This document shows, one piece after another, positions 912-20,795 of a stretch of 20,795 bases of DNA. The DNA lies in IMG/VR virus record IMGVR_UViG_3300027906_000192, positions 1 through 20,795 of that record. One strand, written 5' to 3'. Source of the DNA: a virus. The position numbers and the translations under genes were made by a program. The notes beneath the pieces are model-generated. The model saw nothing but the letters and a program-made list of their open reading frames with translations. It did no database searches and was not told the origin of the DNA. Position 1 is the first letter of the stretch. Every line of letters starts with the position of its first letter.

Positions 912-3326
912 ATGATTAATACAAACTATAACAGTTCATTCCCTGATCAGGTAGTACCTGATTCCGTAAAGAATAGTTATGACTATGGTATCCAAGTGGC
1001 TCGAGCCATAGAGAATGAATGGTTTAGACAAGACATGGGGGGTGATAGATATTTACAAAACTTCCAAAATTATCATAGATTAAGATTGTACGCTAGAGGC
1101 GAACAACCTGTACAAAAGTATAAAGATGAATTGTCTATTAATGGCGATTTATCTTATTTAAATTTAGATTGGAAAATTGTTCCGGTAATTCCTAAGTTTG
1201 TAGATATTGTAGTAAATGGAATGACTGATAAAGGGTATGAGATAAAATCTTTTGCTACAGATCCTTTTGCGTTACAAGAACGCACTGATTTTGCGTTTAA
1301 AGCAATAAGGGATATAATAAATAAAGAATATATTGAGCAAATGAATGAGGCTACAGGTAAAAATTTTTATGCCTCCGCTCAACCAGATAAGCTTCCTGCA
1401 TCGCGTGATGAATTGGATTTGTTTTTACAGCTTAATTATAAACAAAGTGTAGAAATTGCAGAAGAAGAAATAATAAAAAATGTTTTTTCTTATAACAAAT
1501 ACCCTGATATTCAGCGTAGAATTGCCTATGATTTAGCGGTGTTAGGAATAGGAGTTTCTAAAACTAGCTTTAACTTTTCTGAGGGTATTACAGTTGATTA
1601 TGTAGATCCTGCTTCCGTGGTTTATTCTTATACAGAGGATCCAAACTTTGAAGATGTTTATTATGTAGGTGAAGTAAAGAATTTAAGCTTATCTGAAATA
1701 AAAAGATTATATCCTTATTTAACAAGTGAAGAATTAGAGGAAATCCAAAAATACAAAGGGCCTTCTAATTACACTAATTACGTAAGAAATTATAAAGGTC
1801 AAGACGACGGTAATTTAATATCTGTTTTATTTTTTGAATATAAAACTTACACTAACCAAGTGTTTAAATTAAAAAATACTGATCAAGGGTTGGAAAAAAT
1901 ATTAGAGAAAGATGACTCTTTTGACCCACCTGAGAATGATAACTTTAGCAGAGTATCACGTAGCATTGAGGTCCTATACACAGGGGCAAAAGTATTAGGC
2001 TTAAATAAACTACTTAATTGGAGTTTGGCTGAAAATATGACTCGCCCATCGTCAGATGTTACTAAGGTAAACATGAACTATGCAATCTGCGCGCCTAGAA
2101 TGTATAAAGGTAGAATTGATTCTATTGTGAGCCGAATTACAAGTTTTGCTGATATGATTCAATTAACGCATTTAAAACTACAACAGGTGTTAGCAAGGGT
2201 AGTTCCTGATGGTGTGTATTTAGATATGGATGGTTTAGCTGAAGTTGATCTAGGCAATGGGACAAACTACAATCCAGCGGAAGCATTAAATATGTATTTT
2301 CAAACAGGTAGTATAGTTGGAAGATCATTAACCCAGGATGGAGATTTAAATAGAGGAAAAGTTCCTATTCAAGAATTGCAATCTTCTAGTGGGATGGCTA
2401 AAATTCAATCTTTAATTTCTACTTATCAGTATTACTTACAAATGATAAGAGATGTAACCGGCTTAAATGAAGCAGTAGACGGTAGCACCCCCGATAAAAA
2501 TGCGTTGGTTGGGTTACAAAAAATGGCCGCGGCTAATTCTAATGTGGCTACACGACATATATTAAAGGCTTTAATGTACATAACTATTAAAATTGCTGAA
2601 AATATTAGCTTAAGAGCTAATGATGCTCTTCAATTTCCATTAACTAGAGATGCTCTTCTTAATAGCATTAATACTTTTAATGTTAACACGTTAGAAGAAA
2701 TGGAAAGAGTAGCTATGCATGATTTTGGTATATTTTTGGAATTAGAACCTGATGAAGAAGAAAAGGCTAAGCTTGAACAAAATATCCAAGTAGCTTTACA
2801 ATCAGGAGGTATTGATTTGGACGATGCTATCGATATACGACAAATATCAAATTTAAAGTTAGCTAATCAATTACTGAAATTAAAAAGAAAAGAAAAACAA
2901 GCTAGAGATCAGCAAGCAAATCAAGCTAATATTCAAATGCAAGCTCAAGCTAATGCACAAGCATCCGAGGCAGCAGCTCTAGCGGAAGTACAAAAGCAAC
3001 AAGCTTTAGCAGAAACTAAAGTTCAAATTGAAAAAGCAAAGTCCGATTTTGAATTGGCTAGAATGGAACAAGAAGCTTTAATTAAAAAGCAATTAATGGC
3101 AGAAGAATTTAACTATAATATGCAACTAGCTGAAATTCAGGCAGGAGCGGAAACTAAAAAAGAAAAAGAAATAGAAGATAGGAAAGATAAAAGAGTAAGA
3201 ATACAAGGAACTCAGCAATCTGAACTTATTGATCAAAGAAAAAATGATTTATTACCTAAAGATTTTGAATCTGCGGGTAATGATAATTTGAGTGGCTTTG
3301 GCTTAGAACAGTTTGAGCCAAGGTAA
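912..3326 (+). CDS. Portal protein
   Basis: This is the dodecameric portal at one capsid vertex, through which DNA is packaged and ejected and to which the tail attaches. The 804-residue length is large for a portal but normal for crAss-like phages. Residues 1-640 form the body. The stretch around residues 513-550 (VTGLNEA, DGSTPDKNA, then AAANSNVATRH) has the pattern I associate with portals of this group. From about residue 650 to 760 the protein is rich in Q, A, E and K with few helix breakers, predicting a long coiled coil. In long portals this builds the barrel reaching into the capsid. A charged tail follows. The gene lies directly after terL and before the scaffold-like gene. There is no Shine-Dalgarno sequence before the ATG; the leader AAATAC overlaps the end of terL. 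Short minus-strand frames inside it are shadows. Confidence 0.85.
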   Translation: MINTNYNSSFPDQVVPDSVKNSYDYGIQVARAIENEWFRQDMGGDRYLQNFQNYHRLRLYARGEQPVQKYKDELSINGDLSYLNLDWKIVPVIPKFVDIVVNGMTDKGYEIKSFATDPFALQERTDFAFKAIRDIINKEYIEQMNEATGKNFYASAQPDKLPASRDELDLFLQLNYKQSVEIAEEEIIKNVFSYNKYPDIQRRIAYDLAVLGIGVSKTSFNFSEGITVDYVDPASVVYSYTEDPNFEDVYYVGEVKNLSLSEIKRLYPYLTSEELEEIQKYKGPSNYTNYVRNYKGQDDGNLISVLFFEYKTYTNQVFKLKNTDQGLEKILEKDDSFDPPENDNFSRVSRSIEVLYTGAKVLGLNKLLNWSLAENMTRPSSDVTKVNMNYAICAPRMYKGRIDSIVSRITSFADMIQLTHLKLQQVLARVVPDGVYLDMDGLAEVDLGNGTNYNPAEALNMYFQTGSIVGRSLTQDGDLNRGKVPIQELQSSSGMAKIQSLISTYQYYLQMIRDVTGLNEAVDGSTPDKNALVGLQKMAAANSNVATRHILKALMYITIKIAENISLRANDALQFPLTRDALLNSINTFNVNTLEEMERVAMHDFGIFLELEPDEEEKAKLEQNIQVALQSGGIDLDDAIDIRQISNLKLANQLLKLKRKEKQARDQQANQANIQMQAQANAQASEAAALAEVQKQQALAETKVQIEKAKSDFELARMEQEALIKKQLMAEEFNYNMQLAEIQAGAETKKEKEIEDRKDKRVRIQGTQQSELIDQRKNDLLPKDFESAGNDNLSGFGLEQFEPR

Positions 3327-3357: not shown

Positions 3358-4569
3358 ATGCCAACAACAGTAAAACAAGAAGGAGATTTTAAAATAAAAA
3401 AAAGAACTCCAAAAAAATTAGCAGGCAAAGAAGAGGTTATTAAAGTTGATCTTTCAAAACCAGCTACCGAACCTAAAAAAGAAGAAACAAAAGATGCCGT
3501 TCAGGAGCCAAGCACAAAAAAAGTGGATGTACATGAACCACCCAGAGATGGCGAAGAGGTGGGAAAAGGAAACTCCTCAAAACCAGCCATTGCCAAAGAA
3601 ACTGAAGAAAAAACAGTAGAAGAATCTCCAATACAAATTATTGAAGATGAAGAAGATAATTCTGAAGAGGCAGGAGTGGCTGGAAGCAATGAAGCTCCCG
3701 CAGCCATATCGGAACAGAAAGAAGTATTACCGGAAGCAGAAACACAAAAATTACCTGAAGGAGTAGATAAACTAATAAAGTTTATGGAAGAAACCGGCGG
3801 AGATGTACAAGATTATGCCCGGTTAAATGCTGATTATTCTAACGTAGATAGTAATACGCTACTGCGAGAATATTATAAACAAAATAAACCTCATCTAGAT
3901 CAAGAAGATGTAAGTCTTTTATTAGAAGACTTTACATGGGATGAAGAAGTAGATGATGAAAAAGATATACGTAAAAAACAAATTGCGTATAAAGAAGAAG
4001 TTGCAAAAGCCAAAAACTTTTTAGAGCAAACAAAGAGTAAATATTACGAGGAAATCAAGTTGAGGCCCGGCGTTACTCAAGAGCAACAAAAAGCTATGGA
4101 CTTTTTCAACCGATATACCGAAGAACAAAAGCGTAATGATGCAGTTCGAGAAGGATTTATTAATACTACCAAAGACTATTTTTCAAATGATTTTAAAGGA
4201 TTTAATTTTAAATTAGGAGAAAAAAAAGTTCGGTATGCTGTTAAAGATGTTCAATCTACTGCAGATAACCAAAAAGACCTTACAGACTTTGTTGGGACGT
4301 TCCTAGACAAAAACGGTCAAATGAAAGATCCTGCTGGTTATCATAAAGCGATTTACGCTGCCCGAAATGCCGATACTATGGCAACACATTTCTACGAGCA
4401 AGGCCGTGCCGATGCCATTAAAGAACAAGTTGCTAAAACTAAAAACATCACTACTGAGCCAAGGCAAACTGCCCCAGGCGACGTGTTTGTTAAGGGTTTA
4501 AAGGTAAGAGCTATTAGTGGGTTAGACTCTTCAAAATTAAAAATTAGAACAAAAAAATTTAACAATTAA
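3358..4569 (+). CDS. Scaffolding-like prohead assembly protein
   Basis: This is a probable capsid assembly scaffold, inferred from its position between portal and major capsid genes and its composition. The first 135 or so residues are low-complexity, rich in K, E, P and T, and almost certainly disordered. From about residue 137 the sequence becomes ordered and helical, with FMEETGG, a YSNVDSNTLL segment and a charged helix KEEVAKAKNFLEQTKSKYYEEI around residues 215-235 (shown split: KEEVAKAKNFLEQ, then TKSKYYEEI). A more conserved-looking block (RPGVTQEQQ, FSNDFKGF, YHKAIYAARNADT) follows. The C-terminus is strongly basic (LKIRTKKF), suitable for binding capsid protein as in other phage scaffolds. 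A K-rich N-terminus also fits a DNA- or shell-contacting role. The start ATG has no Shine-Dalgarno sequence. Direct homology to a named scaffold could not be tested here; a prohead core protein is the alternative. Confidence 0.65.
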   Translation: MPTTVKQEGDFKIKKRTPKKLAGKEEVIKVDLSKPATEPKKEETKDAVQEPSTKKVDVHEPPRDGEEVGKGNSSKPAIAKETEEKTVEESPIQIIEDEEDNSEEAGVAGSNEAPAAISEQKEVLPEAETQKLPEGVDKLIKFMEETGGDVQDYARLNADYSNVDSNTLLREYYKQNKPHLDQEDVSLLLEDFTWDEEVDDEKDIRKKQIAYKEEVAKAKNFLEQTKSKYYEEIKLRPGVTQEQQKAMDFFNRYTEEQKRNDAVREGFINTTKDYFSNDFKGFNFKLGEKKVRYAVKDVQSTADNQKDLTDFVGTFLDKNGQMKDPAGYHKAIYAARNADTMATHFYEQGRADAIKEQVAKTKNITTEPRQTAPGDVFVKGLKVRAISGLDSSKLKIRTKKFNN

Positions 4570-4579
4570 AATTTAAAAA

Positions 4580-6043
4580 ATGGCAAATGTAGTACCCTCG
4601 TTTGGGTCAATTAAACCTAGTCAGAAACAACAGGTTCTGTCTACAAATTATCTGCAATTTACAGATAAAGCCGGCGATGATTTTTCGGATTTCGCTGCAC
4701 AATATCTTCCTGAGATCTACGAACAAGAAGTAGAGCGATATGGAAACCGAACTCTTTCTGGATTCCTCCGTATGGTAGGAGCAGAAATGCCTATGACTTC
4801 AGATCAAGTAATTTGGTCAGAACAAAATAGATTACACATTGCTTATGACAATGTTTCAAAACTTGCAAACAACGTTGATCTACAATTTACTCTTAATGCA
4901 ACCGCTGGAGCAAATTATGTAGATAATGTAGTTTCTGCTAATCAAACAATTGTAGTAATGAATCCTGCTACAGGCGCTGAAGTAAAAGCTTTGGTTACTG
5001 CTAGTGTCGGATCTAACGCTCTCGGAAGTGCTAATGGTACTCTTACCGTAGCTACTTATACCGGGGCTAATCTTTCTACTACACTTGGAAGCGCTGGTGG
5101 AGTACTTGCTGGTCTTAAAATATTTGTTTATGGTTCTGAATATAGAAAAGGAACTGGTGATGCTGATATTAGAAGCGTAACACCATCTTTCACTCAATTT
5201 AACAATTCACCAATTATTATTAAAGAAAAATATGTGGTCAATGGATCAGATATGGCTCAGATTGGTTGGGTTGAAGTTGCTACTGAAGATGGAACATCTG
5301 GATACCTATGGTACCTAAAAGCTGAATCTGAAACTCGTTTGAGATTTGAAGATTATCTTGAAATGGCTATGGTTGAAGGCGAAAAAGCTGCTGCAGGTTC
5401 TGGAGTTGCTGGTATTGCTACTGATTACGGCGGAACTGAAGGTCTTTTTGCTGCTATTGAAGCTAGAGGTAATGTACTAAATAACTTTAGTGCAGCTGCT
5501 GGTCTAGGAGAATTTGATAGTATTCTTAAGAACCTTGATACTCAGGGTGCTATTGAGGAAAACATGCTTTTCTTAAATAGAAAAACTTCTTTGGATTTTG
5601 ATGATATGCTAGGTAATGTTTCTTCCGGTCTTAACGGAGGTACTGCTTTTGGTCTATTTGAAAACTCTGAAGAAATGGCTTTGAATCTTGGTTTCTCAGG
5701 ATTTAGAAGAGGTTCTTATGACTTTTATAAAACTGACTGGAAATATCTTAACGACGCTTCTACTAGAGGTGCTGTAGCTGTTTCAGCAATTGATGGAGTT
5801 CTTATTCCAGCTGGAACATCAACTGTATACGATCAAATTTTAGGTTCTAATATTCGTAGACCTTTCTTGCACGTTCGATACAGAGCTTCTCAAACAGAAG
5901 ATAGGAGAATGAAGTCTTGGATTACAGGATCTGCCGGAGGTGCTTATACTTCTGACATTGACTCTATGGACGTTCACTTCTTGTCTGAAAGATGTTTATG
6001 TGTACAAGCTGCAAACAACTTTGTATTGTTTACTGCTTCGTAA
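4580..6043 (+). CDS. Major capsid protein (HK97 fold)
   Basis: This is the shell protein of the icosahedral head. The 487-residue length matches the crAss-like major capsid protein (about 490). Residues 36-82 hold the recognisable N-terminal segment (DFAAQYLPEIYEQEVERYG, then LSGFLRMVGAEMP and TSDQVIWSEQ). Roughly residues 104-215 are rich in G, A, T, S and N, with alternating beta character, and probably form an insertion domain on the HK97 core. Residues 219-267 (VVNGSDMAQIGWVEV through RLRFEDYLEMAM) look like the P-domain region. No N-terminal prohead-protease delta domain is evident, so a separate scaffold is plausible. Third positions appear more T/C-rich than in neighbours, as expected for a highly expressed protein. 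The leader AATTTAAAAA-ATGG has no Shine-Dalgarno sequence. An intrinsic terminator follows the stop codon. The minus-strand frame at 4880-5197 is a shadow. Confidence 0.88.
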   Translation: MANVVPSFGSIKPSQKQQVLSTNYLQFTDKAGDDFSDFAAQYLPEIYEQEVERYGNRTLSGFLRMVGAEMPMTSDQVIWSEQNRLHIAYDNVSKLANNVDLQFTLNATAGANYVDNVVSANQTIVVMNPATGAEVKALVTASVGSNALGSANGTLTVATYTGANLSTTLGSAGGVLAGLKIFVYGSEYRKGTGDADIRSVTPSFTQFNNSPIIIKEKYVVNGSDMAQIGWVEVATEDGTSGYLWYLKAESETRLRFEDYLEMAMVEGEKAAAGSGVAGIATDYGGTEGLFAAIEARGNVLNNFSAAAGLGEFDSILKNLDTQGAIEENMLFLNRKTSLDFDDMLGNVSSGLNGGTAFGLFENSEEMALNLGFSGFRRGSYDFYKTDWKYLNDASTRGAVAVSAIDGVLIPAGTSTVYDQILGSNIRRPFLHVRYRASQTEDRRMKSWITGSAGGAYTSDIDSMDVHFLSERCLCVQAANNFVLFTAS

Positions 6044-14991: not shown

Positions 14992-15369
14992 ATGGAATTA
15001 GTAAAAACTAAAAACGACAATATTATAATGCACAACAATGGAGATATTGTTGATTGTGGGGATATCATACCTGTCACTCATGAATTTGCCGACCAAATAT
15101 ATTTAAGAAAAATGGTTATGCAAAAAAATCAATTGGTAGTTGGGGCAGAGCATAAACACGAGCATGTCTGGTTTTTATTAACTGGAAAAGTATTAATTAA
15201 AGAAAGCGGCGAAACAATTATGCATGAGGCACCTTGTTATACAATTTCAAAGCCAGGTGCTAAAAGAACAATTATAGCATTAGAAGAATCTATTTTTATG
15301 AATGTACATAAAAACCCGAATAACACGAAAAATATTAAAGAATTAGAAAATCAAATAGTAAACTTATGA
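14992..15369 (+). CDS. Small single-domain cupin-like protein
   Basis: This is a 125-residue protein with a cupin-type beta-barrel pattern. The first motif is GAEHKHEHVWFLLTGKVLI (residues 51-69), supplying His54, His56 and His58 and the conserved Gly65. The second motif region contains PCYTISKPGAKRTIIALEES with a late His106 (FMNVHKNP) that could complete a metal site. The usual motif-1 Glu is not at its standard spacing. The metal and reaction cannot be read from sequence. Cupins range from enzymes to non-catalytic binding domains. The gene is packed tightly in the virion block, five bases after the tail gene and overlapping the next start by ATGA, so it is co-translated with structural genes. 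A minor tail component, a chaperone or a sugar-modifying enzyme are all possible. Confidence 0.7.
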   Translation: MELVKTKNDNIIMHNNGDIVDCGDIIPVTHEFADQIYLRKMVMQKNQLVVGAEHKHEHVWFLLTGKVLIKESGETIMHEAPCYTISKPGAKRTIIALEESIFMNVHKNPNNTKNIKELENQIVNL

Positions 15370-16118
15370 GTTTTGTATTAGTAGCAGCAGGAATAGGCGC
15401 TGCAGCAGCCGTAGGGAGTGCCGCTATAGGGGCGCACCAACAAAAACAGGCTTCTAAACATAATAGAAATGAAGCCAACAGACTAGGTAAAGAAATCAAA
15501 AGATTAGAAACAAAAAGATCTTTAGAATTACCTGTAATTAATCCTTATGAAGGTGCCACAGATTTGTCTTTTATGATAGAGGATCTTTCAGGTATGCTTA
15601 GTAATCCTTTTGAAAATTTAGGGGTTGCAACAAAAGCCGCGGAAATACAAATGGAACAAACTGATCTTGCTTTAGCTAATACTTTGGATTTATTAGCTAC
15701 TACAGGAGCAAGCGCGGGTGGTGCTACAGCTTTAGCTAGAGCAGCTGCTGCCGGCAAAAAAGGAGTGGCTGCGAGTATAGAATCACAAGAAGCTAAAAAT
15801 CAACAAATGAGGGCACAAGGGGAAGCCAATTTGCAACAACAAAAAATGGCAGAAGCTCAAAGAGTGCAAAGCGGGAAGTTTGGTGAAGCTACTAGACAGC
15901 AGGATATAGACGCACAAGGCAAATTATTTGTCTTTAGAGAAGAAGACAATAGATTACTTGAACAACTTAATAGAAAACAAGCTCAAATGACTGGTCAGCA
16001 ACAAGCGGCTGCTCAAAGGAGTGCTGATGCGGCAAGTATTATGAGTAGTGGAATTAGTGCTGGAGCGCAAGTGCTGGGTTCTGGAGTAACTGCTTACGGA
16101 GCAAGCTTGGGAAACTAA
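15366..16118 (+). CDS. Internal virion (ejection) protein candidate, small
   Basis: This 250-residue protein is built like small internal virion proteins ejected with DNA (T7 gp14, P22 gp7 and crAss-like cargo proteins). Residues 2-23 form an A/G/V-rich hydrophobic segment (FVLVAAGIGAAAAVGSAAIG), able to enter a membrane. Residues 25-52 form a charged helix. A conserved-looking central block follows (NPFENLGVATKAAEIQMEQT, then ANTLDLLATTGASAGGATAL). A Q- and A-rich helical region runs to about residue 215. The C-terminus is again small-residue rich (SSGISAGAQVLGSGV). The ATG overlaps the cupin stop as ATGA, implying translational coupling. It is the first of three genes of rising size (250, 522, over 1000), recalling the T7 gp14-gp15-gp16 order. 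Function is inferred from composition and position. Confidence 0.65.
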   Translation: MSFVLVAAGIGAAAAVGSAAIGAHQQKQASKHNRNEANRLGKEIKRLETKRSLELPVINPYEGATDLSFMIEDLSGMLSNPFENLGVATKAAEIQMEQTDLALANTLDLLATTGASAGGATALARAAAAGKKGVAASIESQEAKNQQMRAQGEANLQQQKMAEAQRVQSGKFGEATRQQDIDAQGKLFVFREEDNRLLEQLNRKQAQMTGQQQAAAQRSADAASIMSSGISAGAQVLGSGVTAYGASLGN

Positions 16119-16218: not shown

Positions 16219-17787
16219 ATGGCAATACAAATACCAACACCTAAAAGAGGAGGGGCTTATGAAAACCCCGAAACAGTAGTTGTTTCTCAAGCAGCGCCTT
16301 ATACCGATGCAATAAACTCATTTGCTAACGCCTTTGTTACAGCATCTGAAGGTTTAGTTAAAATAAAAAATGAAAAACTTAAAAAGACACTAGCAGAGCA
16401 AGCTAAACTTGCTAAAGATGTTTATATAGATCCTACTAAATTTTTAGAAAGATTTGAAAAAGCCGGAGCAACTGAGCAAGAGTATGATATTGTCAATAAA
16501 TTATTTGATGAAAATGCCCAACTTCAGCTAGATATTGAGGCAGGTTCTTATACAAAAGAAGACTATAAAGATTTAATGGCTCAGAAAAACAAAACGCTTA
16601 CTAAGCTAAACCAAATGGTTGGATTTGCTGGAGAAAGTACGACATTTAAAGCTAAATGGGCTGAAGATTTTAGGGAACAAGCTAGAACTATGAGTAATCA
16701 AGGTTACGCCTCTGCTGTTGGAAATGAGGAATACATTGCGGCGGCTAATATATTTTCAGGGGTAACTACCGTGGACAAACCTGGTAATGTTGAAATATTT
16801 TTTAAAGAAGGATCTGATACTCAAATGGTTAGAATTACAGGGGGTGATTTGACAGAAGCCTATGAAGTGCCGCTAGCTTCTTTTTTATCTAATCAACTTC
16901 CTACTGTCCCTAAATATGATGATGAAATAATTGAGTCATTAAAAAATAATAATATTTTAGACAATAACGGGCGATTAACTAAGTATGCAAAAAATATGAC
17001 AGAAAGGCAATATTTTGCAGCAGTTAACAATCTCGTAGCTACAAAAATTGAAGGCTTTAGTGAAAATATAAGCCAAGCTAATAGCTTAGGTCTTGAGGTA
17101 TTTGGCCTTAAGGATCCATTTACTTTATCGATGCAAGACGGCGTCCCTGGGACAGAACTAAGCCCAGAAGACCAAAAGAAGTTAACAGCTGCGGGCGAAG
17201 CGTATACTTTAACCATTATACCTAAGCATGTATATGAACCGGAGGGACCCAGCGCTAAAGAGCTAGCCCGAAGCAACAAAGCGGCTAGAGAAAAGGCTAA
17301 TCAAGATGCGTTTAAAGAATTAATAGATGAAAAGTTAACAACTATTGGGTTGACAACTACACCAACAGGCCAATTTATAGGTACGGTAAATCCTTTAAGC
17401 AAAGATGGAGAAATTAATGCTGCATTTGAAAGAGGCTTGTCCGGGTTAGGTTATCAAATAGAGGAAAGAATTCCAGGCAAGGATGAAAATGAATATATAG
17501 GAATAAGAATAAAGCCTCAAGCTGGAACTGCTGGAAATGGAATTGATGTTTTAAATAATGAAAATGCCCCAGTATTTATTTATAACTTAATGCTCGCGGA
17601 GGGCTACAGTGTGCGAGACGCTAAAGATTTTGCTTATAGAAGTATACCGACCCTGGGTCCTCAAGAAGGGGATTTAGACGACGGAAAAAAATGGGATGAT
17701 AAGTTAAAAAAGTGGGTGGAAGTAAAACCCGAAGATGAATCTGTAACAGACCAAGGACAAAAATATAATCAATATCAAAGAAAATAG
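16219..17787 (+). CDS. Internal virion (cargo) protein candidate, medium
   Basis: I do not recognise a named family in these 522 residues. The N-terminus (AIQIPTPKRGGAYENPETV) is a short basic/proline segment. Residues about 25-160 are strongly helical and charged (EGLVKIKNEKLKKTLAEQAK, then FRE and further helices). A mixed middle follows, including TGGDLTEAYEVPLASFL and MTERQYFAAVNNLVATKIEG. The last third contains FERGLSGLGYQIEERIPG and YNLMLAEGYSVRDAKDFAYR, and the tail is charged and disordered. There is no membrane segment or signal peptide. It lies between a small protein with a membrane-type segment and a giant polyvalent protein, five bases before the latter, so an ejected internal protein is the natural inference by analogy with the T7 and P22 gene order. 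The ATG follows AAAAAATATAAATA with no near Shine-Dalgarno sequence; an in-frame TAA lies two codons upstream. Confidence 0.6.
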   Translation: MAIQIPTPKRGGAYENPETVVVSQAAPYTDAINSFANAFVTASEGLVKIKNEKLKKTLAEQAKLAKDVYIDPTKFLERFEKAGATEQEYDIVNKLFDENAQLQLDIEAGSYTKEDYKDLMAQKNKTLTKLNQMVGFAGESTTFKAKWAEDFREQARTMSNQGYASAVGNEEYIAAANIFSGVTTVDKPGNVEIFFKEGSDTQMVRITGGDLTEAYEVPLASFLSNQLPTVPKYDDEIIESLKNNNILDNNGRLTKYAKNMTERQYFAAVNNLVATKIEGFSENISQANSLGLEVFGLKDPFTLSMQDGVPGTELSPEDQKKLTAAGEAYTLTIIPKHVYEPEGPSAKELARSNKAAREKANQDAFKELIDEKLTTIGLTTTPTGQFIGTVNPLSKDGEINAAFERGLSGLGYQIEERIPGKDENEYIGIRIKPQAGTAGNGIDVLNNENAPVFIYNLMLAEGYSVRDAKDFAYRSIPTLGPQEGDLDDGKKWDDKLKKWVEVKPEDESVTDQGQKYNQYQRK

Positions 17788-17792
17788 TATTC

Positions 17793-20700
17793 ATGGTTTC
17801 ATATCAAGTAAATGGTAAAATCTATGATCTTCCTGAAGAAGAAGTTCAAGGATTTTTAATTGAATTTCCAGATGCAGTGCTAGTTGAAGAAGACGAAACT
17901 GTGGAAAAGCCAATACCTTCACCGGAAGAGAGTGCACCTGTGGAGGAAAATGTAGCGCTCGACAATATGGTATCAGAGCCGGTAGATACTTCTTTGGAAT
18001 TACCTACAACGTATAAAGTTAATGGAAAAATTTATGATTTACCTAAAGAAGAGGTTGCTGGGTTCCTAAGTGTTTTTACGGATGCTGAGCCTTATGAGGG
18101 CGAAGAATCTATTCAAGAGCTTCAAAAAGCTCAACCTAATGGTGAAGCGGTTGATGGATTTTGGGAGTCTTTATATGTTTCTTTTATGAATTCTTTAGAT
18201 AATATTGAACTACAAAGACAATCGGCTGCTCTTATTGAAGATGTTGAGGACGGTGAATTAGAAGCAGAAAATGCCGCAAATTACGTTGTTGCCATGCAAA
18301 ATGTAAATGACAATCAACAAATACAATCTGTAAAAGATTACGATGCCACTGTAAAAAAATACCAAGCCCAAGGAGATAATGGGATGATCGCATCACTAAA
18401 AGGACTATATGATAATCCGGAAGCAGGTTTTGCTATGGCTATTAATTCTTTAGGGACAGTGTATGGTTCTATAGCTGTTGGCGAAAATGTTAAAACAGGT
18501 TTAAAATATGCTGGAGCTGGCGCAGCAACCGGAGCAGTAGCTTCGTCTATAGCGGGTACTGTGGGTGGGCCTTTAGGTACTCTACTTGGAACTATTGGTG
18601 GAACAATAGGAGGGGGATTAAGAGGTTTTTATTTTGGGGCGATGAAACAATTAGAAACTCAATTACTTTTTAGTGAGTTATTAAATGAAAGAATAGAGGG
18701 AGAAATTACTGCTCAAAAAGTTACTGATATTTTTGAAGATAAAGAATTTGTTAATGATATATTAAATAAAGCAGAAAATAGAGGAATTGGAGTTGCTGCT
18801 GTAGAAACTATGCTGGCATTTTTACCCATTAAAGCTGGAGGAGTAATGAGTAAAGCTATAAAAGGAGCTTCTGGGAATGTTGGGCGAGCCGTAGCCGGTA
18901 CTGCAGGCAGAATTGTTACAACGGGGGTGTTGGAGGCAGGAGTAGGAATGTTAGGAGAAGCAACAGGGCAATTAGCATCTGGGCAAGAACTTGATTTAAG
19001 AGAAATAACAGAAGAAGGTATAATAAGCCCCTACGGTAAAGCTATAACCCTTAGAGAATACGTTTCTAATGTTAGAACACTCCAAGATGAAGTAAAAATT
19101 TCAAGTACATTAAAACCTACTAAATATAAAAATGTTTCTGAACTATTTGCTGACAAAACATCTTCTGAAACTCAGGTAAATATTTCAAAATTAAAAAGGT
19201 CTCAAAAAATATTAGATTTACAAGTAGATGCCCAGGTTAATAAAAACGAAATAACTAAAGAAGAAGGCGATAATATTAAAAGAAATTTTAGAGATACGCA
19301 GGGCGCTGTTAACCGCATAAAGCCTTTAAACTTTAATACTGAGCAAGAAACTAAAGCTGTTGAGTTATTAAAAGAAAAACAACAACTTTTAAATGAAATT
19401 AAAGAAGTTGACGAAAAAGCATTAACTCAACCTCAACAAGAAAGAGTTAATGTAATTGATAAAGAGCTTAACAATTTAAGAGTTGAAAGAGCAACTGAAA
19501 CTATAACAGAGGCTGTTGATCCATCGAGAGTAATACTTGTAGAAAATGATCAAGAATTACAAAATAAATATGACATTAAAGGAGCCAATTATTCTGCAGC
19601 AGGTGGATTTTTTAAAGATGGCAAATTTTATATAAACAAAGAAGTTGCTGGGCAATTTGAAACAATTACAGAACCTTCGCATGAATTACTTCACCCTATA
19701 TTAAAAGAGGTATTAAAAGCTAACCCTCAAGAACTAGTAGATGAATTTAAAAAAGTAATAGGCGAAGATAATGTTAGAGCGGTTCAAAAAAGAATTGACG
19801 GTATTGATGTTTATACAAACGAATACATGGAAGCAAATCCCGATGAGTTTATAACTCAATTTGGGGATATGATTTTAGAGGGTGAAATTACCTATAATGA
19901 TAATATTTTTACTAAGATAGGTGATTACATAACTCCTTTACTTAGAAAATTTGGATTTAAAAAAATAAAATTTGACAGTGGTAGGGATGTTTATAATTTT
20001 ATGCGTGAATATTCTAAAGGGATTGAGCGCGGTAAATTATCTGAAGATGTAAAAGCTGTTATCCCTACAGAATTACAGTCCGAAGAAACTTTTTCTGTTA
20101 AAAAGGCTAGTGTATTAGAAGCTATAAATAAACTTGTCCCTCAGGATATTACTACACAAGAAGAATACCAAAGTTTTATAAGGGATGAAAGGTCATCTTT
20201 CCCTAAGCTTTATAGAGCGATTACTGAGCAAGGCGGAGTAATTAATAATTATATTAGAAAAATATCAACTTCGCCAGAAGAAGTGCAAAAAACAGTTGAA
20301 AGATTAGTTGAGAGAACATTAAAGTTTAACCCTGAAGCTGAACGTAAAGATACAAAAAAGGCTGTAGGCATAGAAGCTTTTGGCGAAAGAATATTTGCTG
20401 ATATACAATTTGCTAGAAAAGGATCTAAGCTTGAATTATATGAAGAAAGCGAAAAAACTAAAAGAGAAAGCAGAAGAGAAGACCGTGAAGATGGCTTTGA
20501 AACTTTAGCTGCGCCAGAAACTGAAATTGAAACTACACCCGCCCCACCTGCGCGCGGTAGAAAGCTAGTTAAAAAGCAAGCGCTTAGTGAAGAAAACCAA
20601 AAAGCATTAGAAAAAGTTATTGCAGAAGCAGATTTTACAGAAGAAGAGCTTACGTTTAAAACATTACCCAATGCAGCAATAGAAATTTTTGCAAAAGAAA

Positions 20701-20795
20701 TTGGTATACCTGCTAAAAAATTTGCTGGTAGCTCTAATTTTACTCAAGATGAACTGGGTAAAGTTATAACATATATTGAAGAAAATATAGATATA
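17793..20795 (+). CDS. Giant polyvalent virion protein with zincin-like HELLH site (partial at 3' end)
   Basis: The frame is open from the ATG at 17793 to the window edge: 1001 codons without a stop, so the C-terminus lies beyond the window. Residues 4-28 and 74-98 carry the same motif (Y.VNGKIYDLP.EEV.GFL, then F.DA), identical at 19 of 25 positions and separated by an acidic linker. Residues 240-282 are a glycine-zipper-like stretch (GTVGGPLGTLLGTIGG), and about 331-397 form another small-residue hydrophobic region; both could enter a membrane. Around residue 630 is HELLH (His630, Glu631, His634), preceded by strands ending GKFYINKEV and followed by a candidate third ligand Glu685 (NPDEFITQF), the layout of zincin-type peptidases. 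Residues about 885-930 are disordered. It is likely packaged and ejected with the DNA. Peptidase activity is inferred. Confidence 0.75.
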   Translation, partial: MVSYQVNGKIYDLPEEEVQGFLIEFPDAVLVEEDETVEKPIPSPEESAPVEENVALDNMVSEPVDTSLELPTTYKVNGKIYDLPKEEVAGFLSVFTDAEPYEGEESIQELQKAQPNGEAVDGFWESLYVSFMNSLDNIELQRQSAALIEDVEDGELEAENAANYVVAMQNVNDNQQIQSVKDYDATVKKYQAQGDNGMIASLKGLYDNPEAGFAMAINSLGTVYGSIAVGENVKTGLKYAGAGAATGAVASSIAGTVGGPLGTLLGTIGGTIGGGLRGFYFGAMKQLETQLLFSELLNERIEGEITAQKVTDIFEDKEFVNDILNKAENRGIGVAAVETMLAFLPIKAGGVMSKAIKGASGNVGRAVAGTAGRIVTTGVLEAGVGMLGEATGQLASGQELDLREITEEGIISPYGKAITLREYVSNVRTLQDEVKISSTLKPTKYKNVSELFADKTSSETQVNISKLKRSQKILDLQVDAQVNKNEITKEEGDNIKRNFRDTQGAVNRIKPLNFNTEQETKAVELLKEKQQLLNEIKEVDEKALTQPQQERVNVIDKELNNLRVERATETITEAVDPSRVILVENDQELQNKYDIKGANYSAAGGFFKDGKFYINKEVAGQFETITEPSHELLHPILKEVLKANPQELVDEFKKVIGEDNVRAVQKRIDGIDVYTNEYMEANPDEFITQFGDMILEGEITYNDNIFTKIGDYITPLLRKFGFKKIKFDSGRDVYNFMREYSKGIERGKLSEDVKAVIPTELQSEETFSVKKASVLEAINKLVPQDITTQEEYQSFIRDERSSFPKLYRAITEQGGVINNYIRKISTSPEEVQKTVERLVERTLKFNPEAERKDTKKAVGIEAFGERIFADIQFARKGSKLELYEESEKTKRESRREDREDGFETLAAPETEIETTPAPPARGRKLVKKQALSEENQKALEKVIAEADFTEEELTFKTLPNAAIEIFAKEIGIPAKKFAGSSNFTQDELGKVITYIEENIDI
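17802..17876 (+). repeat. 25-residue coding repeat, copy 1
   Basis: This encodes residues 4-28 of the giant protein (Y.VNGKIYDLP.EEV.GFL, then F.DA). It is repeated at 18012-18086 with 19 of 25 residues identical. The conservation at protein level, with different third bases in places, suggests selection on the motif. Confidence 0.8.
18012..18086 (+). repeat. 25-residue coding repeat, copy 2
   Basis: This encodes residues 74-98 of the giant protein, the second copy of the VNGKIYDLP motif. The 45-residue linker between the copies is acidic and proline-containing, so the two copies probably act as separate small binding units. Confidence 0.8.

What the first reader, a model, noticed from the sequence alone, without database searches (positions are those of the whole stretch)
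19590..19900. HELLH zincin-like site in a probable ejected protein
His630-Glu631-xx-His634 with Glu685 downstream, and a preceding GKFYIN strand, match the layout of zincin-like peptidase domains found in phage polyvalent proteins. In an ejected protein this could act on host cell-envelope or defence proteins, or process virion proteins.
Basis: partly seen in the sequence, partly recalled or inferred. Interest (0 to 1): 0.6.

Follow-up and report, generated by a model that had tools for sequence, protein, structure and literature searches.

The report
Conserved metalloprotease domain in virion protein
A marine short-tailed phage of the kind that infects flavobacteria carries, inside a giant virion protein probably injected into the cell, a zinc-protease site whose four key residues are unchanged in almost all of about 147 distant relatives, so it is very likely a working enzyme, although its target is unknown.

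Summary
The giant ORF at 17793-20795, cut by the contig end, has H630-E631-L-L-H634 and E685; its only two histidines in 1001 residues are those of HELLH. In 147 distinct homologues (46 clusters at 50% identity, median pairwise identity 34%), H630 and H634 are 147/147, E631 146/147 and E685 146/146; the single deviant lies in a broken gene. AlphaFold models of the window domain (pLDDT 78) and of a relative (pLDDT 90, pTM 0.84) show the zincin order: strands and helix, HExxH helix, glutamate helix. The best, though weak, structural match (Z 5.0 and 4.8) is anthrax lethal factor, a zincin. The phage is related to Cellulophaga, Flavobacterium elemo and Maribacter podoviruses. The giant gene ends a small-medium-giant triad; in phi18:3 the counterparts are virion proteins by MS/MS. 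Complete relatives are mostly 2000-3600 aa with the zincin near 27% of the length. No library names the domain, but zincins in injected phage proteins are already described (Iyer 2017), so this is a new, widespread member of a known kind. Catalysis, ejection and substrate are unshown; processing of phage proteins is slightly favoured over attack on host proteins.

The parts
17793..20795 (+). giant virion protein gene, at least 1001 aa, cut by the contig end
   Evidence: ORF; relatives L002, L003, L004; complete relatives mostly 2002-3593 aa
19530..20042 (+). zincin-type metallopeptidase domain, about residues 580-750
   Evidence: conserved block in 147 homologues; AlphaFold models
19620..19637 (+). 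GKFYIN, predicted strand before the active-site helix; N615 is N in 134/147
19680..19694 (+). HELLH: proposed zinc ligands H630 and H634, general base E631
19812..19814 (+). Y674, Tyr in 114 of 130 homologues with a residue here; possible transition-state helper (inference)
19845..19847 (+). E685, proposed third zinc ligand, in the second active-site helix
   Evidence: 146/146; helix 115-126 of the model
19953..20033 (+). conserved C-terminal element of the domain (residues 721-747: G721, F727, V733, N735, F736, Y740, G747)
17802..17882 (+). first copy of the N-terminal module YQVNGKIYDLPEEEVQGFL (residues 4-30)
18012..18092 (+). second copy of the N-terminal module (residues 74-100)
18423..18851 (+). 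variable region with three hydrophobic Gly/Ala-rich segments (residues 211-229, 247-266, 331-353)
15366..16118 (+). small virion protein of the triad (250 aa)
   Evidence: profile matches phi38:1 gp099, elemo gp20, Panino WZE63591 and phi18:3 gp120, the last found by MS/MS
16219..17787 (+). medium protein of the triad (522 aa)
   Evidence: position only; no sequence match to phi38:1 gp100 or phi18:3 gp121 found

Best explanation
Residues ~580-750 of the giant protein form a catalytically competent zinc metallopeptidase of the zincin type: H630, H634 and E685 hold Zn2+, and E631 activates water to cut a peptide bond. The domain sits in the largest, last member of a small-medium-giant set of virion protein genes, the position held by T7 gp16 or the N4 virion RNA polymerase, so it is most likely packaged and ejected with the DNA. 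Its most likely job (about 45%) is to cut the giant polypeptide itself or its ejection partners, during assembly or once they have crossed the envelope. Shown: the site, its near-invariance, the family, and synteny with MS-verified virion proteins. Predicted: the fold. Inferred: zinc binding, catalysis, ejection, substrate. The confidence given is for an active zincin peptidase in a virion protein, not for the substrate.
For: The four residues are near-invariant across 46 clusters at 50% identity, while only 10 of 167 assessed columns reach 95%. E631, which is needed for catalysis and not for zinc binding, is as constant as the ligands. The only two histidines of the window protein are the two of the motif. 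The models have the zincin order of elements, and lethal factor is the top structural match in both. 21 of 61 relatives match the metallopeptidase profile M78 weakly and 6 match SprT-like. The syntenic giant gp123 and small gp120 of phi18:3 are virion proteins by MS/MS, and gp120 is homologous to the window's 250-aa protein. Precedent for zincins in injected proteins, including processing of P1 DdrB: PMC5512222.
Against: No assay and no coordinates. The structural Z scores of about 5 are below the tool's threshold for trust. No sequence or profile match to a characterised zincin family above a curated cut-off. phi38:1, phi18:3 and Panino giants lack any HExxH, so the activity is not essential in all related phages. 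No cleavage product is known, and ejection is by analogy only.
Confidence: 0.82

Rival explanations
1. The zincin is an injected effector that cleaves a host protein (envelope, defence or transcription) early in infection, rather than processing phage proteins.
For: Zincins in conflict systems act as effectors as well as autoproteases (PMC5512222). The domain is present in some related giants and absent from others, and its sequence is diverse (median pairwise identity 34%).
Against: No substrate is known. Within the domain the window and L002 are nearly identical while the neighbouring region differs strongly, which gives no sign of an arms race in the zincin itself.
Confidence: 0.38
2. The fold is a zincin but serves only structure or metal binding in the giant protein, without proteolysis.
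For: No product has been seen; N4 virion RNA polymerase is packaged unprocessed although the region with its MPTase is needed for packaging (PMC5512222).
Against: The general base E631 is kept in 146/147 homologues; the one change is in a broken gene. Structural zincin-like domains usually lose it (established knowledge, e.g. lethal factor domain I).
Confidence: 0.08
3. HELLH is a chance motif in a coiled-coil or helical linker.
For: The flanks are rich in Glu and Lys and helical.
Against: Expected number of motifs 0.0005; near-invariance over 147 homologues; ordered strands and helices in the models.
Confidence: 0.01

Closest known systems
Zincin-like MPTase domains of phage and plasmid polyvalent proteins (Iyer et al. 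2017, PMC5512222; e.g. P1 DdrB, N4 virion RNA polymerase)
   Same: HExxH on one helix and a Glu on the next, after a three-strand/helix unit; embedded in a very large protein; in N4, last in a small-medium-giant virion gene set
   Different: No detectable sequence or profile match to N4 gp50 or P1 DdrB; no match to PF18818 (control silent); no second recognisable enzyme domain in four complete relatives by Pfam
Anthrax lethal factor (peptidase family M34)
   Same: Best structural match for both models: domain I Z 5.0 and catalytic domain Z 4.8 for L136; HExxH plus downstream Glu, and a Tyr before the Glu
   Different: 8-12% identity, Z near 5 only, no sequence match; resemblance of fold only, nothing to suggest a toxin of animals
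Flavobacterium phage elemoE gp18 (3694 aa, annotated structural protein)
   Same: Syntenic giant gene with HEIFH and downstream EE; profile match probability 96%, E 1.8e-9
   Different: Domain lies near residue 1543 of a much longer protein, which also has a DUF3293 domain
Cellulophaga phage phi18:3 gp123 and phi38:1 gp101
   Same: Same position after homologous small virion protein; gp123 found in virions by MS/MS
   Different: No HExxH; no direct sequence match to the window giant found
Peptidase_M78 / IrrE-like (PF06114)
   Same: Weak matches in 21 of 61 homologues, best E 7e-5
   Different: The window domain itself has no match; a minority of members only

Membership tests
Zincin superfamily (HExxH + Glu type) | HExxH active-site motif | tested here: met
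   residues 630-634; His 147/147, Glu 146/147
Zincin superfamily (HExxH + Glu type) | third ligand Glu on a later helix | tested here: met
   E685 146/146, in predicted helix
Zincin superfamily (HExxH + Glu type) | core fold: three-stranded sheet, helix, two active-site helices | tested here: inconclusive
   order of elements fits in confident models; structural match to lethal factor only Z 3.8-5.0
Zincin superfamily (HExxH + Glu type) | ligand side chains converge on one zinc site | not testable with these tools
   no coordinates returned
Zincin superfamily (HExxH + Glu type) | zinc binding and proteolysis | not testable with these tools
   needs purified protein
MPTase-PolyVal (PF18818) | profile match above curated cut-off | tested here: inconclusive
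   no match in the window, but the 14 control genomes were silent too; not among the families shown for the 61 homologues
Polyvalent proteins (Iyer 2017) | several domains of disparate biochemical activity in one polypeptide | tested here: inconclusive
   Pfam finds no other domain in the window or in five complete relatives, but most of the protein is unannotated; six relatives have a second HExxH
Polyvalent proteins (Iyer 2017) | transferred into the host with the DNA | not testable with these tools
   inferred from gene order and MS/MS of relatives
Podovirus ejection-protein triad (T7 gp14-15-16-like) | small, medium and giant internal virion proteins encoded in a row | tested here: inconclusive
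   order present; small protein homologous to virion proteins, giant syntenic with MS/MS-verified gp123; internal location and ejection not shown
Peptidase_M78 (PF06114) | profile match above curated cut-off | tested here: inconclusive
   none for the window; 21 of 61 relatives weakly, best E 7e-5

The most novel reading that the evidence does not exclude
A previously unnamed metallopeptidase family, fixed about a quarter of the way along the giant ejection protein of a large group of marine flavophage-type podoviruses, is an injected protease that cuts a specific host protein to open the cell to infection, with exchangeable N-terminal modules acting as loading tags.
Probability: 0.2. Interest if true: 0.7.

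Novelty: new member of a known kind. Interest (0 to 1): 0.42.

Why it matters
Their giant virion proteins have no annotated function. A conserved protease there gives a concrete activity to test, and a cultured phage (elemo on Flavobacterium) carries a relative in which to test it.

Tried and rejected
Pfam, PHROG and NCBIfam scans of the window protein and its homologues gave no confident name. PDB sequence search with the 61-member profile: none. tblastn of the giant proteins and of the domain against cultured phages: none; only profile methods find elemo gp18. Foldseek against PDB was uninformative, giving globins and spidroins from the helical part, and BFVD gave only weak hits to large phage proteins. 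hhalign to N4 gp50 and P1 DdrB was no better than a reversed-sequence control. One bacterial-genome scan found only two MAG contigs, possibly phage. PHROG 32588 matches the region before the zincin in L090; I first took it for phi38:1 gp101, but gp101 matches a different PHROG and has no direct match to L090, so its source is unresolved. Chance motif rejected.

Full report
What is there. The window is a 20,795-base virus record holding the end of a probable terminase gene, the portal (912-3326), a probable scaffold (3358-4569), the capsid protein (4580-6043), several structural genes, then three genes of 250, 522 and at least 1001 aa, the last running off the contig. The capsid protein is 38-51% identical to those of an uncultured podovirus (ctfjg026), Maribacter phage Panino, Flavobacterium elemo phages and Cellulophaga phi38:1, and 23% identical to that of phi18:3. 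The host is therefore probably a flavobacterium (inference).

The observation. The 1001-aa protein has only two histidines, both in HELLH, and composition predicts 0.0005 such motifs.

Conservation. The close relatives L002 and L003 keep the site, although L003 is only 36% identical over the domain. Searching 24 virus records that share the capsid protein found the domain in 12, and a better profile added 3; the rest may be fragments. Further scans brought the set to 147 distinct sequences in 46 clusters at 50% identity, with median pairwise identity 34%. H630 and H634 are 147/147, E631 146/147 and E685 146/146. The one E-to-D change is in L188, whose gene is broken into pieces. One caution: a pattern used includes the EE at E685, so that column is partly selected in those loci. 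The searches did not use it, and E685 is invariant there as well.

Fold. An AlphaFold model of window residues 570-779 (61 sequences) has mean pLDDT 78 and pTM 0.73. A relative, L136, with 111 sequences reaches pLDDT 89.7 and pTM 0.84. Both show a small strand/helix unit, then the HExxH helix, then a later helix that bears the conserved Glu. This is the arrangement that Iyer et al. give for the zincins of polyvalent proteins (PMC5512222). VIA-align ranks anthrax lethal factor first for both models; for L136 its domain I gets Z 5.0 and its catalytic domain Z 4.8, against 3.4 for the next unrelated row. Z near 5 is weak by the tool's own standard, and residue distances could not be read. The fold is consistent with a zincin but is not proof; the conservation carries the argument.

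Protein context. Sixty-five relatives (some duplicated) have an ORF complete within the locus; all but one, the broken L188 gene (1051 aa), are 2002-3593 aa long, and the zincin lies at a median 27.5% of the length. Between the window and L002, residues ~121-480 differ strongly while the zincin is nearly identical, which points to exchange of modules. The variable part contains three hydrophobic Gly/Ala-rich segments. The most conserved part of the family is the far C-terminal region, which is missing from the window. Pfam recognises no other domain in complete relatives.

Virion location. In phi18:3, gp120, gp121 and gp123 (about 228, 500 and 1935 aa) are annotated from MS/MS proteomics. A profile of the window's 250-aa protein matches phi38:1 gp099, elemo gp20, Panino WZE63591 and phi18:3 gp120. 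The giant protein thus takes the gp123 position. N4 has the same small-medium-giant order with its virion RNA polymerase last, and that protein also carries an HExxH. Ejection is inferred by analogy with T7 and N4 (established knowledge) and with the crAss001 cargo proteins (PMC10172136).

Relatives. elemo gp18 has a divergent but significant copy (probability 96%, E 1.8e-9), so the family reaches cultured phages. The phi38:1, phi18:3 and Panino giants have no HExxH, and ctfjg026 has two other HEFGH sites. The domain is therefore optional in this protein position.

Mechanism. A competent zinc peptidase is the natural reading, because E631, needed for catalysis rather than zinc binding, is as constant as the ligands. 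What it cuts is open. Precedents point both ways: P1 DdrB is processed before packaging, while N4 virion RNA polymerase is packaged whole. I give about 45% to cleavage of the giant or its partners, 38% to a host target and 8% to a non-catalytic role; the remainder is other roles or error.

Verdict. It is a widespread, so far unnamed, new member of a known kind, and moderately interesting.

Noticed in passing
17802-18092; giant ORFs of L118-L196: The N-termini of the giant proteins look like exchangeable 30-40 aa modules of several types (the window has one type twice), followed by a similar acidic linker; possibly packaging or loading tags.
   Followed up: partly
L152, L153, L155, L157, L161, L163 giant ORFs, residues ~2125-2347: A second, different HExxH (AHEKKH...WE..AN.AE) lies near the C terminus of six relatives, suggesting a second metallopeptidase-like domain.
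   Followed up: partly
14992-15369: A 125-aa protein matches the short tail fibre family phrog_12032 (E 9e-19); by eye it resembles a cupin.
   Followed up: no
L110:31756-37245 (Maribacter phage Panino): The syntenic giant of Panino carries a tRNA-methyltransferase-like stretch (phrog_4752) instead of the zincin, so this protein position may hold different enzymes in different phages.
   Followed up: partly
L003 residues ~1500-1980: The most conserved part of the giant family is an unnamed C-terminal region without a Pfam match, absent from the window because the contig ends.
   Followed up: no
L188:4054-10866: The giant gene is broken into three reading frames and is the only copy with HDxxH: either a decaying gene or an assembly error.
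   Followed up: partly
17793-20795: Histidine is nearly absent from these giant proteins (2 of 1001 residues in the window; 0.25% in two complete relatives), whose reason is unknown.
   Followed up: no
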